Source: a virus. From it: a DNA stretch of 31,324 nucleotides. Under the pieces are notes generated by a model. That model was not told where the DNA came from, searched no databases, and was given only the letters and a program-made list of their open reading frames with translations. Location: the IMG/VR virus record IMGVR_UViG_3300043468_001223, positions 1 to 31,324 of that record; one strand, given 5' to 3'. Shown here one piece after another: positions 17,330 through 30,664 of the stretch; position 1 is the first letter of the stretch; the number at the start of each line of letters is the position of its first letter. Made by a program: the position numbers and the translations under genes.

Positions 17330-18373
17330 TCATTTTACCGGCTTAACCGTGTTACCGATCCGGCGATAAACACGCTCGGTTAGGCTCTTGTCACTGTGGC
17401 CTAGCAGCTTGCTAGCGGCTTCTAAATCGATTTCGCTGGCGGCTTTGGGGCGTGTATCGCGGAATTGAAACTCTTTTATTTTTAATGCCAGTTGGGCGTT
17501 GCCTTCGCTGAGTGCGTATTGTGCCGCTTGTTTTCGGGCCTTATCGAAGCGTCCGCGCAACATACCCGGTGATAGTGGATAGCCTTCCGCGTTGTGAATG
17601 ATGCTGAAGCTCTTGATTTTTGTCGGCCTGGATTTGATGCGTTCGACCAGCTGGCCTAAAGCGTTTAATTTGTCATCGCTGGCAAGCAGGATGCGCAGCT
17701 TTTTTTGGGTTTTGTTTTGGCGAATTTCTAAAGCGCCGTCGCGAATGTCGTTAAATTTCATTTTCATCACATCGGCGGGGCGCTGACCGGTCAGGTAGGC
17801 CAGGTCTAAAGCGTCGCGTAGTTCTTGGCATGCGCATTCATAGACGGCAAACCAAACCGCGTCATCCGCGTAAAAATCGCGTGGCGTTTCTTTGTTTTTG
17901 CGTACACCTTTAACCGGATTCTCTTTAGCTGTGTAGCCCCATTCGCGGGCCATGTTCCAGACGTGAGACAGTAGCGAGATTTCGCGGTTGGCTCTGATCG
18001 GGGCTTTTTTGCCGCGTAGGTCGCGGTATTGGGCGATCATTTGCGGGGTAATGTCGTCGATTGCGACTTGTTCAAATACTTTGCGCAGCCATGCGGCATA
18101 GCTGAGATTGTCTTTTTGAGTGCGCGGGGCTTTGGTGGGGATGATGTCTTTTTCGTAGCGGTCTAGGATAGCGCCGAATAGGCGGATGTCCTTGGGTGGC
18201 TCGCCGCCTTCCAGTTCTGCCCATTTCAGCTTGGCTTGATTAAGATCCGAGCCAAGCGGTATTTCTTTAGTTTTGCCGTTGACCGTGGACGCGTAAAAAT
18301 AATACGTCCACACCTGGCCTTTTTTGCCGGTGCGTGTGCGTTTTTTTAGGCGTGGTGGTAGGCGGGATTTCAT
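17330..18373 (-). CDS. int: Tyrosine integrase (site-specific recombinase)
   Basis: A 347-residue protein with an N-terminal basic arm-binding part, a core-binding SAM-like domain at about residues 65-155 ('DRYEKDIIP', 'YRDLRGKKAPIRANREISLLSHVWNMAREWGY'), and a catalytic domain with R198 ('TGQRPADVMKM'), the box II segment R305-D-T-R308, 'LLGH' H326 and the nucleophile in 'ERVYRRI' (Y336). The usual box II His is Arg here (RDTR instead of HDLR), a variant known in HK97-type phage integrases ('RD.R.KAASD'). It inserts the phage into the tRNA-Ser(UGA) gene by recombination at attP, which lies just beyond its 3' end. It is the last gene of the leftward operon. Confidence 0.95.
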   Translation of the reverse strand: MKSRLPPRLKKRTRTGKKGQVWTYYFYASTVNGKTKEIPLGSDLNQAKLKWAELEGGEPPKDIRLFGAILDRYEKDIIPTKAPRTQKDNLSYAAWLRKVFEQVAIDDITPQMIAQYRDLRGKKAPIRANREISLLSHVWNMAREWGYTAKENPVKGVRKNKETPRDFYADDAVWFAVYECACQELRDALDLAYLTGQRPADVMKMKFNDIRDGALEIRQNKTQKKLRILLASDDKLNALGQLVERIKSRPTKIKSFSIIHNAEGYPLSPGMLRGRFDKARKQAAQYALSEGNAQLALKIKEFQFRDTRPKAASEIDLEAASKLLGHSDKSLTERVYRRIGNTVKPVK

Positions 18374-21864: not shown

Positions 21865-21916
21865 TGCCGCCGCCGTGAGCCTGGGCAGTGAGCCTATAGG
21901 TAGCTCACTGCCCAGG
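21865..21916 (-). repeat. Intra-operon hairpin, copy A of a dispersed repeat
   Basis: A perfect 14-bp inverted repeat: CCTGGGCAGTGAGC (21880-21893) with GCTCACTGCCCAGG (21903-21916), loop of 9. It starts 5 bases after the DUF2303 stop. Bases 21865-21895 match 23216-23246 at 28 of 31 positions. There is no T-run on either side, so it is not a classical terminator; an mRNA-stabilising or processing hairpin is likelier. Confidence 0.7.
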
Positions 21917-23215: not shown

Positions 23216-23246
23216 TGCCGCCACCGTGAGCCTGGGCGGTGCGCCT
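23216..23246 (-). repeat. Dispersed intra-operon repeat, copy B
   Basis: 28 of 31 bases match 21865-21895 (mismatches at three positions). The surrounding sequence can form only an imperfect hairpin (GGGC..GCGC with GCGC..GCCC), so the perfect stem of copy A is degenerate here. It lies between the 23257 and 22765 genes. Confidence 0.6.
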
Positions 23247-23256
23247 GGAGGGAGCG

Positions 23257-23475
23257 CTAGCCCGGCGGTCGCTGGGCTGTGAGTATCTTTTGCAGCAGGT
23301 TGACCGCGGTTTGTACGTCTTCTGCAATCATTTTGGTTTTTTGCTCAAGCCGTTGCGGCGGTAGCCTACCAAAGACTTTATCCAGTTCGGCTTTGCGGGC
23401 GTCTTGCAGGTAACGGATGGCGTTATCAATCGCTGCCAGTTGGTTTTCTGGTGCCCATGTTTGATTAATGATCAT
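23257..23475 (-). CDS. Small helical protein, unknown
   Basis: A 72-residue protein from the ATG at 23475, which overlaps the previous gene by 11 bases; an in-frame start at 23502 is possible. It is predicted helical ('QLAAIDNAIRYLQDARKAELDKVFGR', 'MIAEDVQTAVNLLQKILTAQ'), perhaps a short coiled coil. No family recognised. It is the second gene of the leftward operon. Confidence 0.55.
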   Translation of the reverse strand: MIINQTWAPENQLAAIDNAIRYLQDARKAELDKVFGRLPPQRLEQKTKMIAEDVQTAVNLLQKILTAQRPPG

Positions 23476-23803
23476 GACGGCGGGCCTGGATTTTTTCAGC
23501 ATGGGGTTTGATGACGTTGAGCGCTTTGAGTTGCGCGGGTGTCATGTCGGATTGTGCGCAGATGGGCACCGGTTGGGCCTGGGCGGTGTCTATGCTGTGC
23601 CAGATAACCCAAAGTGTTGAGCAGATAGCCAGTATCGCAATAAGGCTGGCTATGGATACGCCGATGATGGCGCGGGCGTCGGCTTCGCTTTCTGTGATAA
23701 AAGTGGATTTGCGGCTGTATTTGGTTTTGCAGCAACTGGCCGCGTCGTTTTTCATGTTTGCCAATATTTCATCTAGCGGTATGGCTTGTCTGATGGTTCG
23801 CAT
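23465..23803 (-). CDS. Single-pass membrane protein, first gene of the leftward operon
   Basis: A 112-residue protein with GGAG 8 bases before the ATG. One transmembrane segment at about residues 45-68 ('AIIGVSIASLIAILAICSTL'), a cytoplasmic basic N-terminus and a polar C-terminus with 'PICAQSDMTPAQLKALNVIKPH'. I recognise no family. As the first gene after pL and its structured leader it is in the place where lambdoid phages carry N or host-interaction genes; it does not look like N, being neither short nor arginine-rich. Confidence 0.6.
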   Translation of the reverse strand: MRTIRQAIPLDEILANMKNDAASCCKTKYSRKSTFITESEADARAIIGVSIASLIAILAICSTLWVIWHSIDTAQAQPVPICAQSDMTPAQLKALNVIKPHAEKIQARRHDH

Positions 23804-23821
23804 AGATCACACTCCAGTTAT

Positions 23822-23885
23822 AAAAAAGTGCCACCCCCACGCGGGCGGATTAAACCATTTAAGAAAAATAGCCCGCGTCGGTGGC
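23822..23885 (-). terminator. Terminator-like hairpin in the pL leader, next to the first gene
   Basis: On the minus strand GCCACC (23880-23885) and ACGCGGGC (23871-23878 region) pair with GCCCGCGT (23839-23846) and GGTGGC (23830-23835), then ACTTTTTT (23822-23829). The loop is long and contains its own small hairpin. The GC-rich stem followed by six U is terminator-like and lies 19 bases before the first start codon. Confidence 0.55.
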
Positions 23886-23891
23886 TGGGTT

Positions 23892-24190
23892 AGATGTTTT
23901 GGCAACCCGGTTTTTCCAGACCCCAGATTTTTCTAGTAGCACTACTCGGGCCGTTTTACGACTCCCGAGGACGTCGGCCAAAACATCTTGAATAACCCCG
24001 CCAGGGTGTTGCTAGTGGTGTGTGAGGGCTAATATCACTACCTAGCAGGGTTATTCAGGATGTCTTTTTAGCTTTCAAGGATTGGTGGCCGGATGCGATC
24101 CCGGCATGCAGCGGTTATCACTACGTGCGCATAAATTTTCGTACGCTGCTAGTAAATCTATGCGTATCGCCTACGCATTCACCAATTCTT
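23892..24190. ncRNA. Highly structured 300-base region in the pL leader (candidate structured RNA)
   Basis: This gene-free stretch contains three adjacent structures. Structure 1: 23892-23903 pairs with 23977-23988 (12 bp perfect), with an inner CTCGGG/CCCGAG hairpin (23945-23950/23964-23969). Structure 2 begins at the next base: 23989-23998 with 24048-24057 (10 bp) and 24010-24020 with 24036-24047 (11 bp, one bulge). Structure 3: 24077-24087 with 24180-24190 closes a four-way junction whose arms are GCCGG/CCGGC (24088/24101), GCAGCG/CGCTGC (24108/24144) and ATGCGTA/TACGCAT (24160/24172). It lies inside the predicted leftward leader, but two wobble positions (24080-24187 and 24017-24039) pair as G-U only in the plus-strand RNA. 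So the transcribed strand is uncertain. No known RNA family is recognised. Confidence 0.6.
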
Positions 24191-24204
24191 CAAAACTCAA
24201 CCCC

Positions 24205-24232
24205 AAAAAAGACCGGCTAACTAAGCCCGGTC
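24205..24232 (-). terminator. Intrinsic terminator 40-70 bases downstream of pL
   Basis: On the minus strand GACCGG (24227-24232) pairs with CCGGTC (24211-24216), with a further AGC/GCT possibility inside, then six T (24205-24210). It follows the predicted pL start (about 24272) by 40 bases, so it would stop most leader transcripts unless antitermination occurs. A second hairpin, CCAACAG..CTGTTGG (24250-24273), sits at the 5' end of the same transcript. Confidence 0.75.
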
Positions 24233-24278
24233 AGGCTTTGGGAGAACTACCAACAGGCACGCTGTGCTGTTGGTAAAG

Positions 24279-24307
24279 AATATAACAAGTTGTTACTTTG
24301 AGGTCAA
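24279..24307 (-). promoter_or_regulatory. Leftward early promoter (pL)
   Basis: On the minus strand: TTGACC (24302-24307), 17-base spacer, TATATT (24279-24284). Two operator copies overlap it: 24283-24295 covers the -10 edge and spacer, 24308-24320 abuts the -35. It drives the leader and the long leftward operon ending in int. Confidence 0.85.
24283..24295. promoter_or_regulatory. Operator OL1 (TAACAA-G-TTGTTA)
   Basis: A perfect 13-base dyad covering the pL spacer and edge of the -10. Closely similar sites are found at 24308, 25605 and 25639. Confidence 0.8.
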
Positions 24308-24320
24308 TAACAATTTGTTA
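24308..24320. promoter_or_regulatory. Operator OL2 (TAACAA-T-TTGTTA)
   Basis: A perfect 13-base dyad directly upstream of the pL -35, 25 bases from OL1 centre to centre. Confidence 0.8.
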
Positions 24321-24336
24321 TTTGTGCAGGCATAAA

Positions 24337-24356
24337 AAAACCGCCGAAGCGGTTTT
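24337..24356 (-). terminator. Terminator of the repressor operon
   Basis: AAAACCGC (24337-24344) pairs perfectly with GCGGTTTT (24349-24356), loop CGAA. On the minus strand it is followed by TTTTTTT, 19 bases after the end of the HIRAN gene. It insulates the CI operon from pL. Confidence 0.88.
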
Positions 24357-24374
24357 GGTGAGCAAGAAAAAAAG

Positions 24375-25175
24375 TCAGGCAATATAAGTAAATAAGTAAT
24401 AGGCCATAACAATCACAATAAAAACGAACATTGGAATGGTGAATGTTAATTTTTGAGTTTTTATTTCTATTGGCGCGTGGTTAATTTTTTTTCTGAAAAA
24501 GTGTCCTTTAATAACTGGTATTGGGTAGTTGTATCCAATTATTTTTTTAACATAGCATTCATAGTCATAACCTTGATCAAGAAGATTGGCTATTTCTTCA
24601 GCCTCAAACTCAGGAACAAAACCAAATTGAATATGATTTTTTGTAATCATTTTCACTGCGTTTTTGCTAAATTTATTATTTAGGTCTCTTTCAAAATAAA
24701 CCGTGTCATCTTCATCAAGATAACGGTCAATAATAGGAGCTCTGTTCTCAAATTTTGTTCCGGCCGTCATGAAATCAAACGTCATGATTGGCGCGTCAAG
24801 TTTAGCCTGATGTTTTTCTAATGCTTTTTTAGCTTTCCTTTCTTCCAATGCTAATGTTTTTGTTGCATGCTCTTTGTCTGTTCTATTTTTTCTAGCTGCC
24901 TTCCTGTCATTAACTGGCAAGACTGATTCAATGGCTTTATATAGTTCTTTATCAGATTTTGAGCGTTGTATTGCTTCTAATAAATAATTAAAAGCAGGTA
25001 ATTCAGAAAGCGTGTGCTCAGAAATAAGCTGCGTGAGATTTGACAGCTCTTCCTGTGATATTTCGCCGTCGTTTGTGATTTCTACGCACAAGTTTAAAAG
25101 CTTTTGGCCTTCATCTGTGGTTAGTTGTGATTTTGTAAGTGAAATCCTTTTATTAATTTTTTCTTGATTTTCCAT
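24375..25175 (-). CDS. TerB-like + HIRAN domain protein with C-terminal membrane anchor, cotranscribed with the repressor
   Basis: A 266-residue protein with three parts. Residues 20-90 ('LLNLCVEITNDGEISQEELS', 'ELPAFNYLLEAIQRSKSDKE') resemble a TerB-like helical domain. A charged helix (92-127) leads to a HIRAN-like domain at about 132-220: 'TVYFERDLNNKFSKNAVKMI', then 'HIQFGFVPEFEAEEIANLLDQG', matching the HIRAN pattern of 'rE..N..d.nAV....g..iGy.P...a..la.ll..G'. A single hydrophobic helix, 'KLTFTIPMFVFIVIVMAYYL', ends the protein. HIRAN domains in helicases and nucleases bind DNA 3' ends. The gene starts 17 bases after the CI gene, so it should be made in the lysogen, like rex genes of lambda. 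A superinfection-exclusion or defence role is inferred. Confidence 0.78.
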   Translation of the reverse strand: MENQEKINKRISLTKSQLTTDEGQKLLNLCVEITNDGEISQEELSNLTQLISEHTLSELPAFNYLLEAIQRSKSDKELYKAIESVLPVNDRKAARKNRTDKEHATKTLALEERKAKKALEKHQAKLDAPIMTFDFMTAGTKFENRAPIIDRYLDEDDTVYFERDLNNKFSKNAVKMITKNHIQFGFVPEFEAEEIANLLDQGYDYECYVKKIIGYNYPIPVIKGHFFRKKINHAPIEIKTQKLTFTIPMFVFIVIVMAYYLFTYIA

Positions 25176-25192: not shown

Positions 25193-25579
25193 TTAAGCGG
25201 AATTTCGTTTGACTATGTAACCAGGGCTTTTTTCTGCAATGATTTGTTGATAGCGCGTGTCAATGTGCGCTTTAAAAATAGCCTTTTCTTCGTCAGGCAG
25301 TAATGAGATATCTAGGCAATCATTGCTTATTGGCTGAGGCCTCATTGGGCCGCGTCCCGTTAGCAGCCATTCAACACAGCAATTAAACTCCATTGATATT
25401 GCTATAGCCTGCTGCATTGTCGGCAATCTATCGCCGTTCCACCAGTATGTTACTGCTGGCCCTTTTACGCCTAGCTGTTTTCCGATGTCTTCCCGTCTGT
25501 GATGTGCGCGTCCTTCTTCATTTAATAATCTTCGGAATCGCTGCGAAAAATCAATTAAGCGATCTTCTTTTTCAGTCAT
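25193..25579 (-). CDS. cI: CI-type repressor (HTH, no LexA-like peptidase domain)
   Basis: A 128-residue protein from the ATG at 25579; an in-frame ATG at 25627 would begin inside the operator region. Residues 8-70 hold an XRE-type helix-turn-helix: 'FSQRFRRLLNEEGRAHHRRE' then 'DIGKQLGVKGPAVTYWWNGD' and 'QQAIAISMEFNCCVEWLLTGRGPM'. The C-terminus is short ('LPDEEKAIFKAHIDTRYQQI'), with no Ser/Lys peptidase residues, so induction cannot be by RecA-stimulated self-cleavage as in lambda; an antirepressor or other signal would be needed. Divergent from Cro across two operators, it is the likely immunity repressor. Confidence 0.82.
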   Translation of the reverse strand: MTEKEDRLIDFSQRFRRLLNEEGRAHHRREDIGKQLGVKGPAVTYWWNGDRLPTMQQAIAISMEFNCCVEWLLTGRGPMRPQPISNDCLDISLLPDEEKAIFKAHIDTRYQQIIAEKSPGYIVKRNSA

Positions 25580-25604
25580 GCAAGTAGCATGATCTAAACT
25601 CAAG

Positions 25605-25617
25605 TAACAATCAGTTT
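25605..25617. promoter_or_regulatory. Operator OR2, degenerate (TAACAA-T-CAGTTT)
   Basis: The left half matches the other operators exactly; the right half is degenerate, so it is probably a weak site. It is positioned between cI and the pR -35. Confidence 0.55.
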
Positions 25618-25626
25618 CTAAAATCA

Positions 25627-25655
25627 TTGCATGTTAAGTAACAAACTGTTATTTT
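25627..25655 (+). promoter_or_regulatory. Rightward early promoter (pR)
   Basis: TTGCAT (25627-25632), 17-base spacer, TATTTT (25650-25655). The operator at 25639-25651 lies over the spacer and -10. Expected start of transcription is near 25662, almost exactly at the Cro ATG. Confidence 0.6.
25639..25651. promoter_or_regulatory. Operator OR1 (TAACAA-A-CTGTTA)
   Basis: A 13-base dyad with a single mismatched pair compared with OL1, located in pR. Confidence 0.75.
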
Positions 25656-25660
25656 ATGGC

Positions 25661-25864
25661 ATGGAAAAATTAATCGCTTTTTTTGGGGGCCGTAAAGCTG
25701 CTGCTGATGCAATTGGGGTTACTCCCAGTTATTTGACAATGATAAAGAATGGTCAGCGCAAGTTTTCCCCTGAAAAATCAATAGAGATTGATCGTTTAAC
25801 AAATGGACGAATAAGCAAAAGCTTTTTAAGGCCTGACATTTTTACAGAGCAACAAAATTTATGA
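25661..25864 (+). CDS. cro: Cro-like HTH protein (YdaS family-like)
   Basis: A 67-residue protein: 'MEKLIAFFGGRKAAADAIGV' then 'TPSYLTMIKNGQRKFSPEKSIEIDRLTNGRI'. This is a Cro/YdaS-type HTH ('G....A..IGV....V..W..G...' with 'A..IE..T.G.I'). I chose the ATG at 25661 because the in-frame ATG at 25631 would lie inside pR and its operator. No Shine-Dalgarno precedes it. It starts the rightward early operon and faces CI across the operators, the classic lambdoid switch. Confidence 0.85.
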   Translation: MEKLIAFFGGRKAAADAIGVTPSYLTMIKNGQRKFSPEKSIEIDRLTNGRISKSFLRPDIFTEQQNL

Positions 25865-26781: not shown

Positions 26782-27028
26782 TAAACGTGAGCGGGTGTGG
26801 GGCTTGCGGGATGTGGGCGAATACAAAGCGTACCGACGCGGAGCCGTGCATTATGTGGGGCATAAAAACGCTGAGCGTTTGCGCAGGGTGCAATTAGGTA
26901 AATTTGAGGTTGAATTAATTGTTAAGCAAACGCCGTCCGGCTTTGCCGATGCAATTGAAGCGATGTTGCAGCACTTTAAAAAAATAGGCTCGCCACAGTA
27001 TTACGAGGTCAAGCATGGACGCGTTTGA
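26774..27028 (+). CDS. 84-residue hypothetical protein before DnaB
   Basis: A basic protein, 'RVWGLRDVGEYKAYRRGAVH' then 'VGHKNAERLRRVQLGKFEVELIVKQTPSG'. It overlaps both neighbours (8 and 14 bases). No motif recognised. Position suggests a replication accessory role. Confidence 0.58.
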   Translation: MADKRERVWGLRDVGEYKAYRRGAVHYVGHKNAERLRRVQLGKFEVELIVKQTPSGFADAIEAMLQHFKKIGSPQYYEVKHGRV

Positions 27029-28409
27029 TTCTGTGCCCAGCGGCTTAGTCCCGCCGCAAAACCTGCAGGCTGAGGAATCGGTGATTGGTGGTTGTTTGAT
27101 CGATCCGCACGGTTACAGCAAAGTCTCTCACATGCTGCAGGTGGATGATTTTTATGATCATCGCAATAAGATCATTTTCAACGCCATCGGCGCGCTGGTG
27201 GCGGATGGCTCGGCGGTGGATATTTTGCTGGTTGATGAATATCTGCGCTGGAAAGGGCTATCTGAAAAAGTGGGTGGATTAGCGCATTTGGGCGGGATTG
27301 CCCGTGATACGCCAAGCGCTGCAAACATCGCGCATTACGCCGCGATCATCCGCGAAAAATCCATGTTGCGGGCGGTGTTAAAAACTGCAAACGAAATGAC
27401 CGCCGCCGCGATGGACGCCAACGGCGCGGGGGCAAAAGCCATCATCGAGCTGGCAGAGAATCAAATTTTTGCACTCGGCCAGATGGGTTTGCGGGGGAAG
27501 CAAGGTTTCTCACGGATGCGGGAGATTTTGGGCGCGGTGGTCGATGAAATGGAAAGCAATCTGGACAATCCGCCTAAAGACGGTGTGCGGGGGTTATCGA
27601 CCGGGTTTGATGATTTGGATCAGTTGACCGGGGGATGTTCTCCGGGTGATTTGGTGCTGATTGCTGCACGGCCATCGATGGGTAAAACGTCTTTGGCCAT
27701 GAACATGGCGGAGCATATCGCCCTGGTTAAGCAAAAGCCTGTGGCTATTTTTTCCATGGAAATGCAAAAGCCTGCTATCGCTCAACGTTGTTTATCGTCT
27801 ATTTCAGGCGCTGGTTTGAGAAAAATCCGCGACAGCTGGACGCTACAAGATCCTGACTGGACGTTGTTATCCGCTGGGATTTCGCGTTTGAACCAATCAC
27901 CGCTGTTTATCGACGATACGCCAGCATTGACGATCAGCAGCATACGGAGCCGGGCTTTACGGTTGGTGTCTGAATTGTCGGATGAATTCCCCGGCGGGCT
28001 GGGTGCCATTGTGGTCGATTATATCCAGTTGATGGGGGTGGATGGCCGCAGCGATGACAACCGCAACGGTCAGATTGAGGTGATCAGTCGCGGGCTCAAG
28101 CAGCTGGCTAAAGAGCTTGGGATACCGGTGTTTGCTTTGTCACAGCTTAATCGTAATTGTGACAGCCGACCGAATAAACGCCCGGTGATGTCTGATTTGC
28201 GGGATTCCGGATCGTTAGAGCAGGACGCGGATTTGATTTTGTTTTTGTATCGAGATGAGGTTTACAACAAAGAGTCTGTTGACAAGGGCGTTGCGGAGCT
28301 GATCATCGGCAAGCAGCGTAATGGGGCCCTGGGAACGGTTCGGTTAATGTTTGATGGGGCTTGTACCCGATTTAGAAACCTGGCGCGGGGTGGGTATGTT
28401 GGGGAGTAG
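27015..28409 (+). CDS. dnaB: Replicative DNA helicase, DnaB family
   Basis: A 464-residue DnaB homologue of normal length. N-terminal domain with 'PPQNLQAEESVIGGCLIDPH' (residues 13-32) and 'DFYDHRNKIIFNAIGALV'; RecA-like C-terminal domain with 'GLSTGFDDLDQLTGGCSPGDLVLIAARPSMGKTS' (Walker A at about 217-226), Walker B 'IVVDYIQLM', and 'LSQLNRNCDSRPNKRPVMSDLRDSGSLEQDADLILFLYRDE'. It is the phage's own replicative helicase, loaded at the phage origin, probably by the DnaT-like protein two genes downstream, so the host helicase need not be recruited. It overlaps the preceding gene by 14 bases. Confidence 0.96.
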   Translation: MDAFDSVPSGLVPPQNLQAEESVIGGCLIDPHGYSKVSHMLQVDDFYDHRNKIIFNAIGALVADGSAVDILLVDEYLRWKGLSEKVGGLAHLGGIARDTPSAANIAHYAAIIREKSMLRAVLKTANEMTAAAMDANGAGAKAIIELAENQIFALGQMGLRGKQGFSRMREILGAVVDEMESNLDNPPKDGVRGLSTGFDDLDQLTGGCSPGDLVLIAARPSMGKTSLAMNMAEHIALVKQKPVAIFSMEMQKPAIAQRCLSSISGAGLRKIRDSWTLQDPDWTLLSAGISRLNQSPLFIDDTPALTISSIRSRALRLVSELSDEFPGGLGAIVVDYIQLMGVDGRSDDNRNGQIEVISRGLKQLAKELGIPVFALSQLNRNCDSRPNKRPVMSDLRDSGSLEQDADLILFLYRDEVYNKESVDKGVAELIIGKQRNGALGTVRLMFDGACTRFRNLARGGYVGE

Positions 28410-29642: not shown

Positions 29643-30023
29643 GTGGAAAACGGTAGTGGATCGGCGATTAATGCGCTGAGCAAAAGTAAAACACGGTATC
29701 AGCATCAAGACCAACTGTTGTTGGGGTTTTTGCGCATGCCTGACAGCACGGCTAAAGAAGTGGCTGCGGAGTACCACAACTGGATGTATGAAAAATATGC
29801 CGATGCTTCCAAGCGGGCTACGGATTTGTCTAGTGATCGGTTGGGGTATTTAGAGTTAGTCGGAAATCGAGCCTGCCGCCGGTCTGGCAAGGATGCGCAT
29901 ATTTATCGCATTACTGAGCGTGGTATACAGCATTTGCAGGATGTGGGGTTGATGGGTTCGGCTGCGCCGGTTATGGGTGGTCGGTCTGGGTTTGCGTCAA
30001 TGCGTGAAGCATTGGCCGGTTGA
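29643..30023 (+). CDS. Winged-helix-like protein, unknown
   Basis: A 126-residue protein with a strong Shine-Dalgarno (AGGAGGG) before a GTG start. 'HQDQLLLGFLRMPDSTAKEVAAEYHNWMY', 'SSDRLGYLELVGNRACRRSGKDAHIYRITERGIQHLQDVGLM' fits a winged helix-turn-helix (helix, helix, 'GYLE', beta wing, final helix). It lies between the initiator and Q. A DNA-binding regulator, or replication/recombination accessory (lambda Nin-region type) is possible. Confidence 0.65.
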   Translation: MENGSGSAINALSKSKTRYQHQDQLLLGFLRMPDSTAKEVAAEYHNWMYEKYADASKRATDLSSDRLGYLELVGNRACRRSGKDAHIYRITERGIQHLQDVGLMGSAAPVMGGRSGFASMREALAG

Positions 30024-30037
30024 TAGGAGGATTTGGC

Positions 30038-30589
30038 GTGGCGTGTGTTGAGGTGTTGGGTAGGTTGTGTGCGGGGACTGCAAATTATGCCGGGGTGGTT
30101 GGTGGCGGTGTGTCTGAGTTGCAGGCGGTTGAGGTGTCTGGATTTTTAGCGGGGCTGCAGCGCGGTCCTATGTTGGTAGCCATGGCAAAGTATATGGGCG
30201 ATCAAGAGTCTAGGCGCTGCTTGTTTGTGGATGTGAGGGCTTATTTGCTGGGTGTTGGTCTGACATGGAAAGGTGAGCGTTGGGATGTCATTGACAGGTG
30301 CAACCGGATGGCGGCTCTTTCCGTGTCTGAGTTTATTAATGACAAGTGTGTCAAGTGTCACGGGACTCGGTTTGTTAAAGCCAAAGCCTGCTCATGCTGT
30401 GGCGGGACTGGGTTTAAACGATTGAGCGGGCGTGAGGTTGCTAAGACTGTGGGCGTTGATGAGTCTAACTATCGCAGGGTCTGGAAGGCGCGTTATCAAT
30501 CCGCAACGGATCGTTTGCGGGATTATGACGCTGAGGTTAACAGGGCTGTCAGTCGTTACAATTGGGACGTGTTTTTACAAAACACTTGA
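30038..30589 (+). CDS. Q: Late antiterminator Q
   Basis: A 183-residue protein. I chose the GTG at 30038 with AGGAGG 7 bases upstream over the TTG at 30020. A zinc finger of the Q family, C104-x2-C107 ('CVKCHGTRFVKA') and C118/C120/C121 ('CSCCGGTGF'), is followed by a basic helix-turn-helix segment ('GREVAKTVGVDESNYRRVWK'). Q proteins load onto RNA polymerase paused just after the late promoter and make it ignore terminators. pR' (30586-30614), a pause element (30619-30624) and tR' (30631-30664) follow at once, which makes the call strong. Confidence 0.88.
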   Translation: MACVEVLGRLCAGTANYAGVVGGGVSELQAVEVSGFLAGLQRGPMLVAMAKYMGDQESRRCLFVDVRAYLLGVGLTWKGERWDVIDRCNRMAALSVSEFINDKCVKCHGTRFVKAKACSCCGGTGFKRLSGREVAKTVGVDESNYRRVWKARYQSATDRLRDYDAEVNRAVSRYNWDVFLQNT

Positions 30590-30614
30590 CACCGCCGCAA
30601 TATTGCCCTTTAAT
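30586..30614 (+). promoter_or_regulatory. Late promoter pR'
   Basis: TTGACA (30586-30591), 17-base spacer, TTTAAT (30609-30614). CATAAT at 30619-30624 would lie at about -1 to +4 of the transcript and resembles the -10-like sigma pause element used by Q in lambdoid phages. The -35 overlaps the Q stop codon. Confidence 0.85.
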
Positions 30615-30630
30615 TTCCCATAATTGCACC

Positions 30631-30664
30631 AAAGCCCGGTTATTGATTTAACCGGGCTTTTTTT
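30631..30664 (+). terminator. Late terminator tR'
   Basis: AAAGCCCGGTT (30631-30641) pairs perfectly with AACCGGGCTTT (30650-30660), then the T-run continues to 30664. It ends about 40 bases after the pR' start and must be passed with Q for late gene expression. Confidence 0.92.

What the first reader, a model, noticed from the sequence alone, without database searches (positions are those of the whole stretch)
23892..24190. Three adjacent multi-branched structures in a 300-base gene-free leader
Perfect stems of 12, 10 and 11 bp and a four-way junction closed by an 11-bp stem (one G-U) lie end to end with almost no unpaired spacer between structures 1 and 2. No ORF explains this. The region is inside the predicted pL leader, but two wobble positions favour a plus-strand RNA. 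It could be a put-like antitermination RNA, a regulatory ncRNA or an antisense RNA to the early transcript. The structure is seen in the sequence; the function is inference.
Basis: partly seen in the sequence, partly recalled or inferred. Interest (0 to 1): 0.78.

Follow-up and report, generated by a model that had tools for sequence, protein, structure and literature searches.

The report
Modular folded leader of phage transcript
The start of this phage's leftward early transcript carries a chain of elaborately folded RNA modules, one with a pseudoknot, whose shape evolution has kept in four related phages by matching pairs of mutations; it looks like a new regulatory RNA, but its function is only inferred.

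Summary
The structures are real, but the RNA lies on the MINUS strand, not the plus strand. They sit in the ~470-nt leader of the leftward early (pL) operon of a lambda-like phage: pL with operator-like repeats, a 5' hairpin, intrinsic terminator T1, units U1-U2-U3, terminator-like hairpin T2, then the first genes.

Three related IMG/VR phages carry the leader. Noncoding U2-U3 diverges 2-5% between the near relatives, against about 19-21% at third codon positions of the next two genes. With a distant fourth phage (L109), all 36 tested pairs hold in all four phages and ten show changes on both sides (0/500 shuffles). G-U cells favour the minus strand 11:2. U3 is a 12-bp closing stem around an H-type pseudoknot. 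The other units are modular: U1's interior is swapped, further units come and go, and the order changes in L109.

No Rfam family matches. A put model finds HK022 putL and putR but nothing here; no boxA or recognisable N gene was found. A cis-acting, put-like (but not put) antitermination RNA is my best guess, about 0.35; RNase-processed or trans-acting RNAs are rivals. Overall: a new structured leader-RNA family, function unproven.

The parts
24279..24307 (-). pL promoter-like site TTGACC-17-TATATT with TG before the second hexamer
   Evidence: best promoter-like match (10/12) on the minus strand of the region; equivalent sites seen in relatives
24282..24321 (.). pair of operator-like inverted repeats ATAACAAGTTGTTA / TAACAATTTGTTAT overlapping pL
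   Evidence: repeats D3, I4; conserved in L020
24250..24273 (-). hp0: hairpin CCAACAGCACAGCGTGCCTGTTGG at the expected 5' end of the transcript
   Evidence: present in L019, L020 and L109
24205..24232 (-). T1: intrinsic terminator GACCGGGCTTAGTTAGCCGGTCTTTTTT
   Evidence: conserved in L019 and L020, different sequence but same position in L109
24070..24197 (-). Unit U1: base stem AGTTTTGAAGAATTGGTG/CACCAATCCTTGAAAGCT with a G.G mismatch, closing a multi-hairpin head; head differs in every relative
23989..24057 (-). Unit U2: 17-bp stem P2 (24041-24057/23989-24005) with two U-G pairs, capped by a small hairpin
23892..23988 (-). Unit U3: 12-bp closing stem P3 (23977-23988/23892-23903) around an H-type pseudoknot
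23945..23976 (-). H-type pseudoknot of U3: S1 23973-23976/23959-23962, S2 23964-23969/23945-23950, A-rich L3 23951-23958
   Evidence: the competing hairpin is broken in two phages
23822..23885 (-). T2: terminator-like hairpin GCCACCGACGCGGGC...GCCCGCGTGGGGGTGGC followed by ACTTTTTT, just before the ribosome-binding site of the first gene
   Evidence: stem invariant in three phages while its loop varies
23465..23803 (-). first gene downstream of the leader, 112 aa, unknown function, one likely membrane segment
23257..23502 (-). second gene, 81 aa, unknown function, conserved in all four phages

Best explanation
SHOWN: 23822-24273 specifies, on the minus strand, a structured leader with the order 5' hairpin - terminator T1 - folded units U1, U2, U3 (U3 with an H-type pseudoknot) - terminator-like T2 - first gene. 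U2-U3 and its pairing are kept by selection in four phages. INFERRED: it is transcribed from pL as the leader of the leftward early operon and acts mainly in cis on the RNA polymerase that makes it. Once U2-U3 has emerged and folded (two abutting helices plus a pseudoknot), it makes the elongation complex resistant to termination, so that T2 and later terminators are read through and the early genes are expressed without an N protein. It would thus work like HK022 put while being a different RNA. U1 and the extra units of relatives (U0, UA) would be exchangeable accessory domains. How T1 is passed (leakiness, or the 5' hairpin) is not explained.
For: Pairing conserved by compensatory change: 144/144 cells paired, 10 of 36 pairs changed on both sides, 0/500 shuffles, slid registers 0-1. 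Strong purifying selection on noncoding U2-U3. Sense strand is the pL strand. The units lie between a promoter-proximal terminator and a terminator-like hairpin just before the first gene in all four phages. No N-like protein was recognised among the early gene products scanned and no boxA in the leaders. U2-U3 can lie next to T2 or some 700 nt upstream of it (L109), as expected of an RNA that loads on the polymerase rather than of a local switch. The rightward early region shows no comparably strong intrinsic terminator before the one after the Q-like gene, so a rightward copy is not demanded.
Against: T1 lies upstream of the units and cannot be suppressed by an RNA not yet made. No put match by covariance model. 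Terminator function of T1 and T2 is predicted only. Host, transcription and RNA polymerase contact are all untested. U1's strongly conserved stem base and the near-invariant U0 of relatives suggest further, unexplained ligands. Absence of an N-like gene is a failure to recognise one by profile, and N proteins diverge fast.
Confidence: 0.35

Rival explanations
1. 5' mRNA processing and stability: the leader is a structured 5' end, cut by RNase III in its long stems and protecting or gating translation of the early mRNA, much as the lambda N leader is processed (that precedent from my own knowledge).
For: P2 is a near-perfect 17-20 bp helix in four phages, long enough for RNase III. T2 ends just before the ribosome-binding site. 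Pairing is kept while the sequence of P3 changes freely.
Against: U2-U3 lies far from the first homologous gene in L109, with two ORFs and other units between. A protective role alone does not ask for a conserved pseudoknot or conserved loop sequences.
Confidence: 0.25
2. Trans-acting RNA modules: pL makes an array of independently folded RNAs, released by processing or ended at T2, that bind host or rival-phage targets (decoys, sponges or inhibitors); the downstream genes are a separate matter.
For: Each unit is self-contained behind its own closing stem. Units are gained, lost, reordered and re-headed between phages. T1 and T2 could bound discrete RNAs. One distant relative (L003) holds a tRNA-like element of 41.8 bits with an enlarged middle in the corresponding leader.
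Against: No target, no processing site and no transcript is known. The units always lie in the leader of the same operon.
Confidence: 0.2
3. Local attenuator or riboswitch: alternative pairing of U3 with the 3' arm of T2 (AGUGCUACU/GGUGGCACU) switches T2 on and off for the first gene in answer to a ligand or protein.
For: RNAalifold on three close relatives picks this pairing. T2 stands directly before the first gene.
Against: The alternative is 3-6 kcal/mol less stable in all three phages and complementarity that good arises in about 10% of shuffles. In L109 U3 is not next to the T2-like hairpin at all.
Confidence: 0.06
4. Plus-strand or antisense RNA, or a DNA-level structure or recombination linker, as the first reader partly suggested.
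For: Both strands fold better than shuffles. Structured stretches coincide with points where phage modules are exchanged.
Against: G-U cells 11:2 for the minus strand, one U-G pair invariant in four phages. No + strand promoter-like site at the feature. Better z on the sense strand in the relatives tested. Compensatory change with G-U pairs kept argues for RNA.
Confidence: 0.06

Closest known systems
HK022 put RNAs (putL, putR)
   Same: Structured, gene-free RNA in the early leader of a lambda-like phage, just behind pL; two abutting stem-loops (PMC9378689); phage without a recognised N gene; terminators ahead of early genes.
   Different: put is about 70 nt, conserved in sequence and recognised by a covariance model that finds nothing here. 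Here U2-U3 alone is about 165 nt with a pseudoknot, a terminator (T1) lies upstream of it, there are 1-3 further exchangeable units, and no second copy on the rightward side was found.
lambda N leader / nutL (from own knowledge)
   Same: Structured leader of the pL transcript ahead of the first early gene, with long stems.
   Different: No boxA, no recognised N gene, several tandem units and a pseudoknot here.
EAR element of Bacillus eps operons (Rfam epsC; from own knowledge)
   Same: Large structured cis-acting RNA that promotes read-through inside an operon, with a pseudoknot.
   Different: No Rfam match here; different host group and position; no antitermination shown.
GOLLD and ROOL RNAs (PMC12286853, found)
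   Same: Large multi-domain structured RNA carried by phages, function unknown.
   Different: No Rfam match; smaller, modular, and inside an early mRNA leader.

Membership tests
HK022 put antitermination RNA | match to a covariance model of put sequences | tested here: not met
   Model R1 from eight put sequences finds HK022 putL (94.7 bits) and putR (39.3 bits, not in the training set) but no match in the leaders of the window, L019 or L020
HK022 put antitermination RNA | two stem-loops end to end in the early leader | tested here: met
   U2 and U3 abut with zero spacer in the pL leader; the put description is from PMC9378689
HK022 put antitermination RNA | located just behind the early promoter, ahead of the terminators | tested here: not met
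   T1 lies between pL and the units in all four phages; T2 lies after them
HK022 put antitermination RNA | suppresses termination by binding the zinc-binding domain of RNA polymerase beta' | not testable with these tools
   needs a reporter or in vitro transcription
lambda nut/N antitermination | boxA and boxB in the leader and an N-like gene | tested here: not met
   no boxA within one mismatch in five leaders; one boxB-like hairpin in U1 of the window only; no N-like match among nine window proteins scanned, four of them leftward early genes
Any Rfam 15 family | score at or above the family's gathering threshold | tested here: not met
   none in the window; only sub-threshold chance-level hits at relaxed E-value in 23500-24700 and in the leaders of L019 and L020
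tRNA or tRNA-like structure | tRNA covariance-model or ARAGORN match | tested here: not met
   none in the window; seen only in the unrelated leader of L003

The most novel reading that the evidence does not exclude
The leader is an evolving cassette array: interchangeable, self-contained RNA modules between two terminators of the early operon, gained, lost, reordered and re-headed between phages, which act in trans on host or competitor machinery (decoys or inhibitors), the RNA counterpart of an accessory-gene locus.
Probability: 0.15. Interest if true: 0.82.

Novelty: new variant of a known kind. Interest (0 to 1): 0.58.

Why it matters
It adds a covariation-supported, pseudoknot-bearing RNA family with no match among the Rfam 15 families to the few known structured early leaders of temperate phages. 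If it is an antiterminator, it would be another RNA that modifies RNA polymerase without resembling put, which a reporter can test directly. The module swaps show that folded noncoding units can be traded between phages much as genes are. Phage genomes from metagenomes may hold many such leaders that annotation overlooks: L065, L009 and L003 show analogous but unrelated ones.

Tried and rejected
Plus-strand or antisense RNA: rejected on G-U asymmetry and folding z-scores. put membership: rejected by covariance model with a positive control. nut/N: no boxA, no N-like gene recognised. U3-T2 attenuator switch: less stable, complementarity not unusual, not conserved in L109. Rfam families: none at threshold in the window; relaxed-threshold hits in the window, L019 and L020 leaders were far below threshold, and none in the L009 leader. 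tRNA mimicry in the window units: no signal, though L003 has one. Pattern hits L023, L025, L026 and L027 were judged chance matches from the unrelated sequence around them. More homologues: none in the phage collection for the window leader or, beyond a weak 38-base hit, for L109; none in plasmids for L109; none by an exact 22-mer scan of genome contigs; none convincing in samples of 399 genomes of the order of G001 or 369 of its class. G001 is the genome in which L029 lies. Those samples say little, since the host is unknown.

Full report
WHAT WAS CHECKED. The finding describes three adjacent multibranched structures at 23892-24190. Folded as RNA, 23880-24200 is far more stable than dinucleotide shuffles on both strands (minus -117.8 kcal/mol, z -6.1; plus -109.9, z -4.0). 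Among 780 windows over the whole record, those covering this leader are among the most structured.

CONTEXT. The record is a lambda-like phage: integrase-like gene at 17330-18373, early leftward genes up to 23803, a HIRAN-domain gene at 24375-25175, CI-like repressor 25193-25627, Cro-like gene 25631-25864, DnaB-like helicase 27015-28409, and a Q-like gene 30020-30589 followed by a late-promoter-like site and a strong terminator. A sigma70-type promoter-like site on the minus strand at 24307-24279 overlaps a pair of operator-like inverted repeats. It would start a leftward transcript near 24272, so the structures lie in a leader of about 470 nt. Along that RNA the order is: hairpin hp0 (24273-24250), intrinsic terminator T1 (24232-24205), unit U1 (24197-24070), U2 (24057-23989), U3 (23988-23892), terminator-like hairpin T2 (23885-23822) ending ACTTTTTT, then a Shine-Dalgarno sequence and a 112-aa gene.

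STRAND. On minus, P2 is a continuous 17-bp helix with two U-G pairs. Over the pairs counted in four phages, 11 cells are G-U on minus and 2 are G-U on plus (binomial p 0.02; the cells are not independent). In three phages the sense strand has the better z-score (-6.0 against -3.9; -5.3 against -2.3; -7.9 against -6.4).

RELATIVES. Three other phages with this leader were found, all in IMG/VR: L019/L022 and L020/L021 and, through the conserved second gene, the more distant L109 (67% protein identity). A record identical to part of the window also exists (L018/L024). In the near relatives U2-U3 differs at 4-9 of 177 positions, while third codon positions of the next two genes differ at 35-38 of 182-183 (Fisher p 4e-5 to 1e-8). 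This noncoding stretch is under strong purifying selection.

COVARIATION. L109 decides the structure. Its U2 stem is ATCTGGAAAACCCCTGC.../...GCGGGGGTTTTCCAGAT and its U3 stem AGATGCATAAGC/GCTTATGCATCT, against AGATGTTTTGGC/GCCAAAACATCT in the window. On the four-sequence alignment, the structure P2 + P3 + pseudoknot has 144 of 144 cells paired and 10 of 36 pairs changed on both sides, against a shuffled mean of 2.6 (0/500 as high); registers slid by 1-3 columns give 0-1. The competing hairpin inside U3 is broken in two phages. U3 is therefore best read as a 12-bp closing stem around an H-type pseudoknot: S1 CGAC/GUCG (G-C for A-U in L109), S2 CUCGGG/CCCGAG (AA/UU for UC/GA in L019), a one-base L2 and an A-rich L3. 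The structure was read from these same sequences, so the slid controls flatter it; the changes on both sides do not depend on that. Each both-sided change is seen in a single phage. The U1 stem is conserved in sequence and gives no significant covariation of its own.

MODULARITY. Window: T1-U1-U2-U3-T2-gene. L019: T1-U0-UA-U1-U2-U3-T2-gene. L020: T1-ORF(84 aa)-U0-UA-U1-U2-U3-T2-gene. L109: T1-U2-U3-U0-two small ORFs-UA-U1-a different T2-like hairpin-gene. U1 keeps its base stem, with a G.G mismatch that UA of L019 and L020 shares, while its interior differs in all four phages. U0 (GGGGAGAAACRCCTAAGCCAGYCGGGTAAGWGCTGGC) is nearly invariant in the three phages that have it. The window seems to have lost U0 and UA (inference from the junction).

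ANALOGUES. Other phages of the DUF2303 group have unrelated but similar-looking leaders: L065, where three long stems abut directly after a pL-like promoter (z -9.7); L009, a multibranch closed by a 15-bp stem and absent from its sister L010; and L003, a 15-bp-stem unit followed by a tRNA-like element of 41.8 bits with an enlarged middle. This is a resemblance of architecture, not homology.

MECHANISM. No function is shown. The position between two predicted terminators, the absence of a recognised N gene or boxA, conservation of shape over sequence in P3, and the freedom of U2-U3 to move relative to the gene point to action in cis on transcription, hence put-like antitermination at about 0.35. 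Against it stands T1 upstream. It is not a put: a covariance model from eight put sequences finds HK022 putL (94.7 bits) and the untrained putR (39.3 bits) but nothing in this leader. The features of put are taken from PMC9378689. Rivals are mRNA 5' processing or stability and trans-acting modules. A local switch through U3-T2 pairing was examined and set aside.

VERDICT. This is a new, selection-maintained, modular structured leader RNA of an early phage operon, with no Rfam match and no proven function.

Noticed in passing
L003:4383-4490 (IMGVR_UViG_3300027265_000053): tRNA-like element (RF00005, 41.8 bits) with normal acceptor, D and T arms but a much enlarged middle, in the early leader of a related phage; ARAGORN does not call it and the default Rfam filters missed it.
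   Followed up: partly
L065:3586-3784 (IMGVR_UViG_3300029640_000017): Three long stems directly abutting after a pL-like promoter, z about -9.7; no sequence similarity to the window leader and no match in the phage collection.
   Followed up: partly
L009:3506-3674 (IMGVR_UViG_2744054915_000001): Multibranched unit closed by a 15-bp stem ahead of the early genes, absent from the corresponding place of the sister phage L010.
   Followed up: partly
window 21865-21904 and 23216-23255: 40-nt element repeated at 85% identity between early genes; the first copy forms a 15-bp perfect hairpin on the minus strand (z -4.9). The second copy lies near the point where L019 lacks the phrog_204 and DUF2303 genes.
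   Followed up: partly
L019:4466-4515, L020:4520-4575, L109:3024-3072: Unit U0, GGGGAGAAACRCCTAAGCCAGYCGGGTAAGWGCTGGC, nearly invariant in three phages whose other leader parts differ; missing from the window; no Rfam match in L019 or L020.
   Followed up: partly
window 30590-30660: Late-promoter-like TTGACA-17-TTTAAT right after the Q-like gene, followed by a strong terminator; same promoter-then-terminator layout as pL-T1.
   Followed up: no
L022:7250-7523: Cluster of long inverted repeats, including a 29-nt arm GTCCCACTTTTTTAAAAAAGTGGGACGGC with several partial copies.
   Followed up: no
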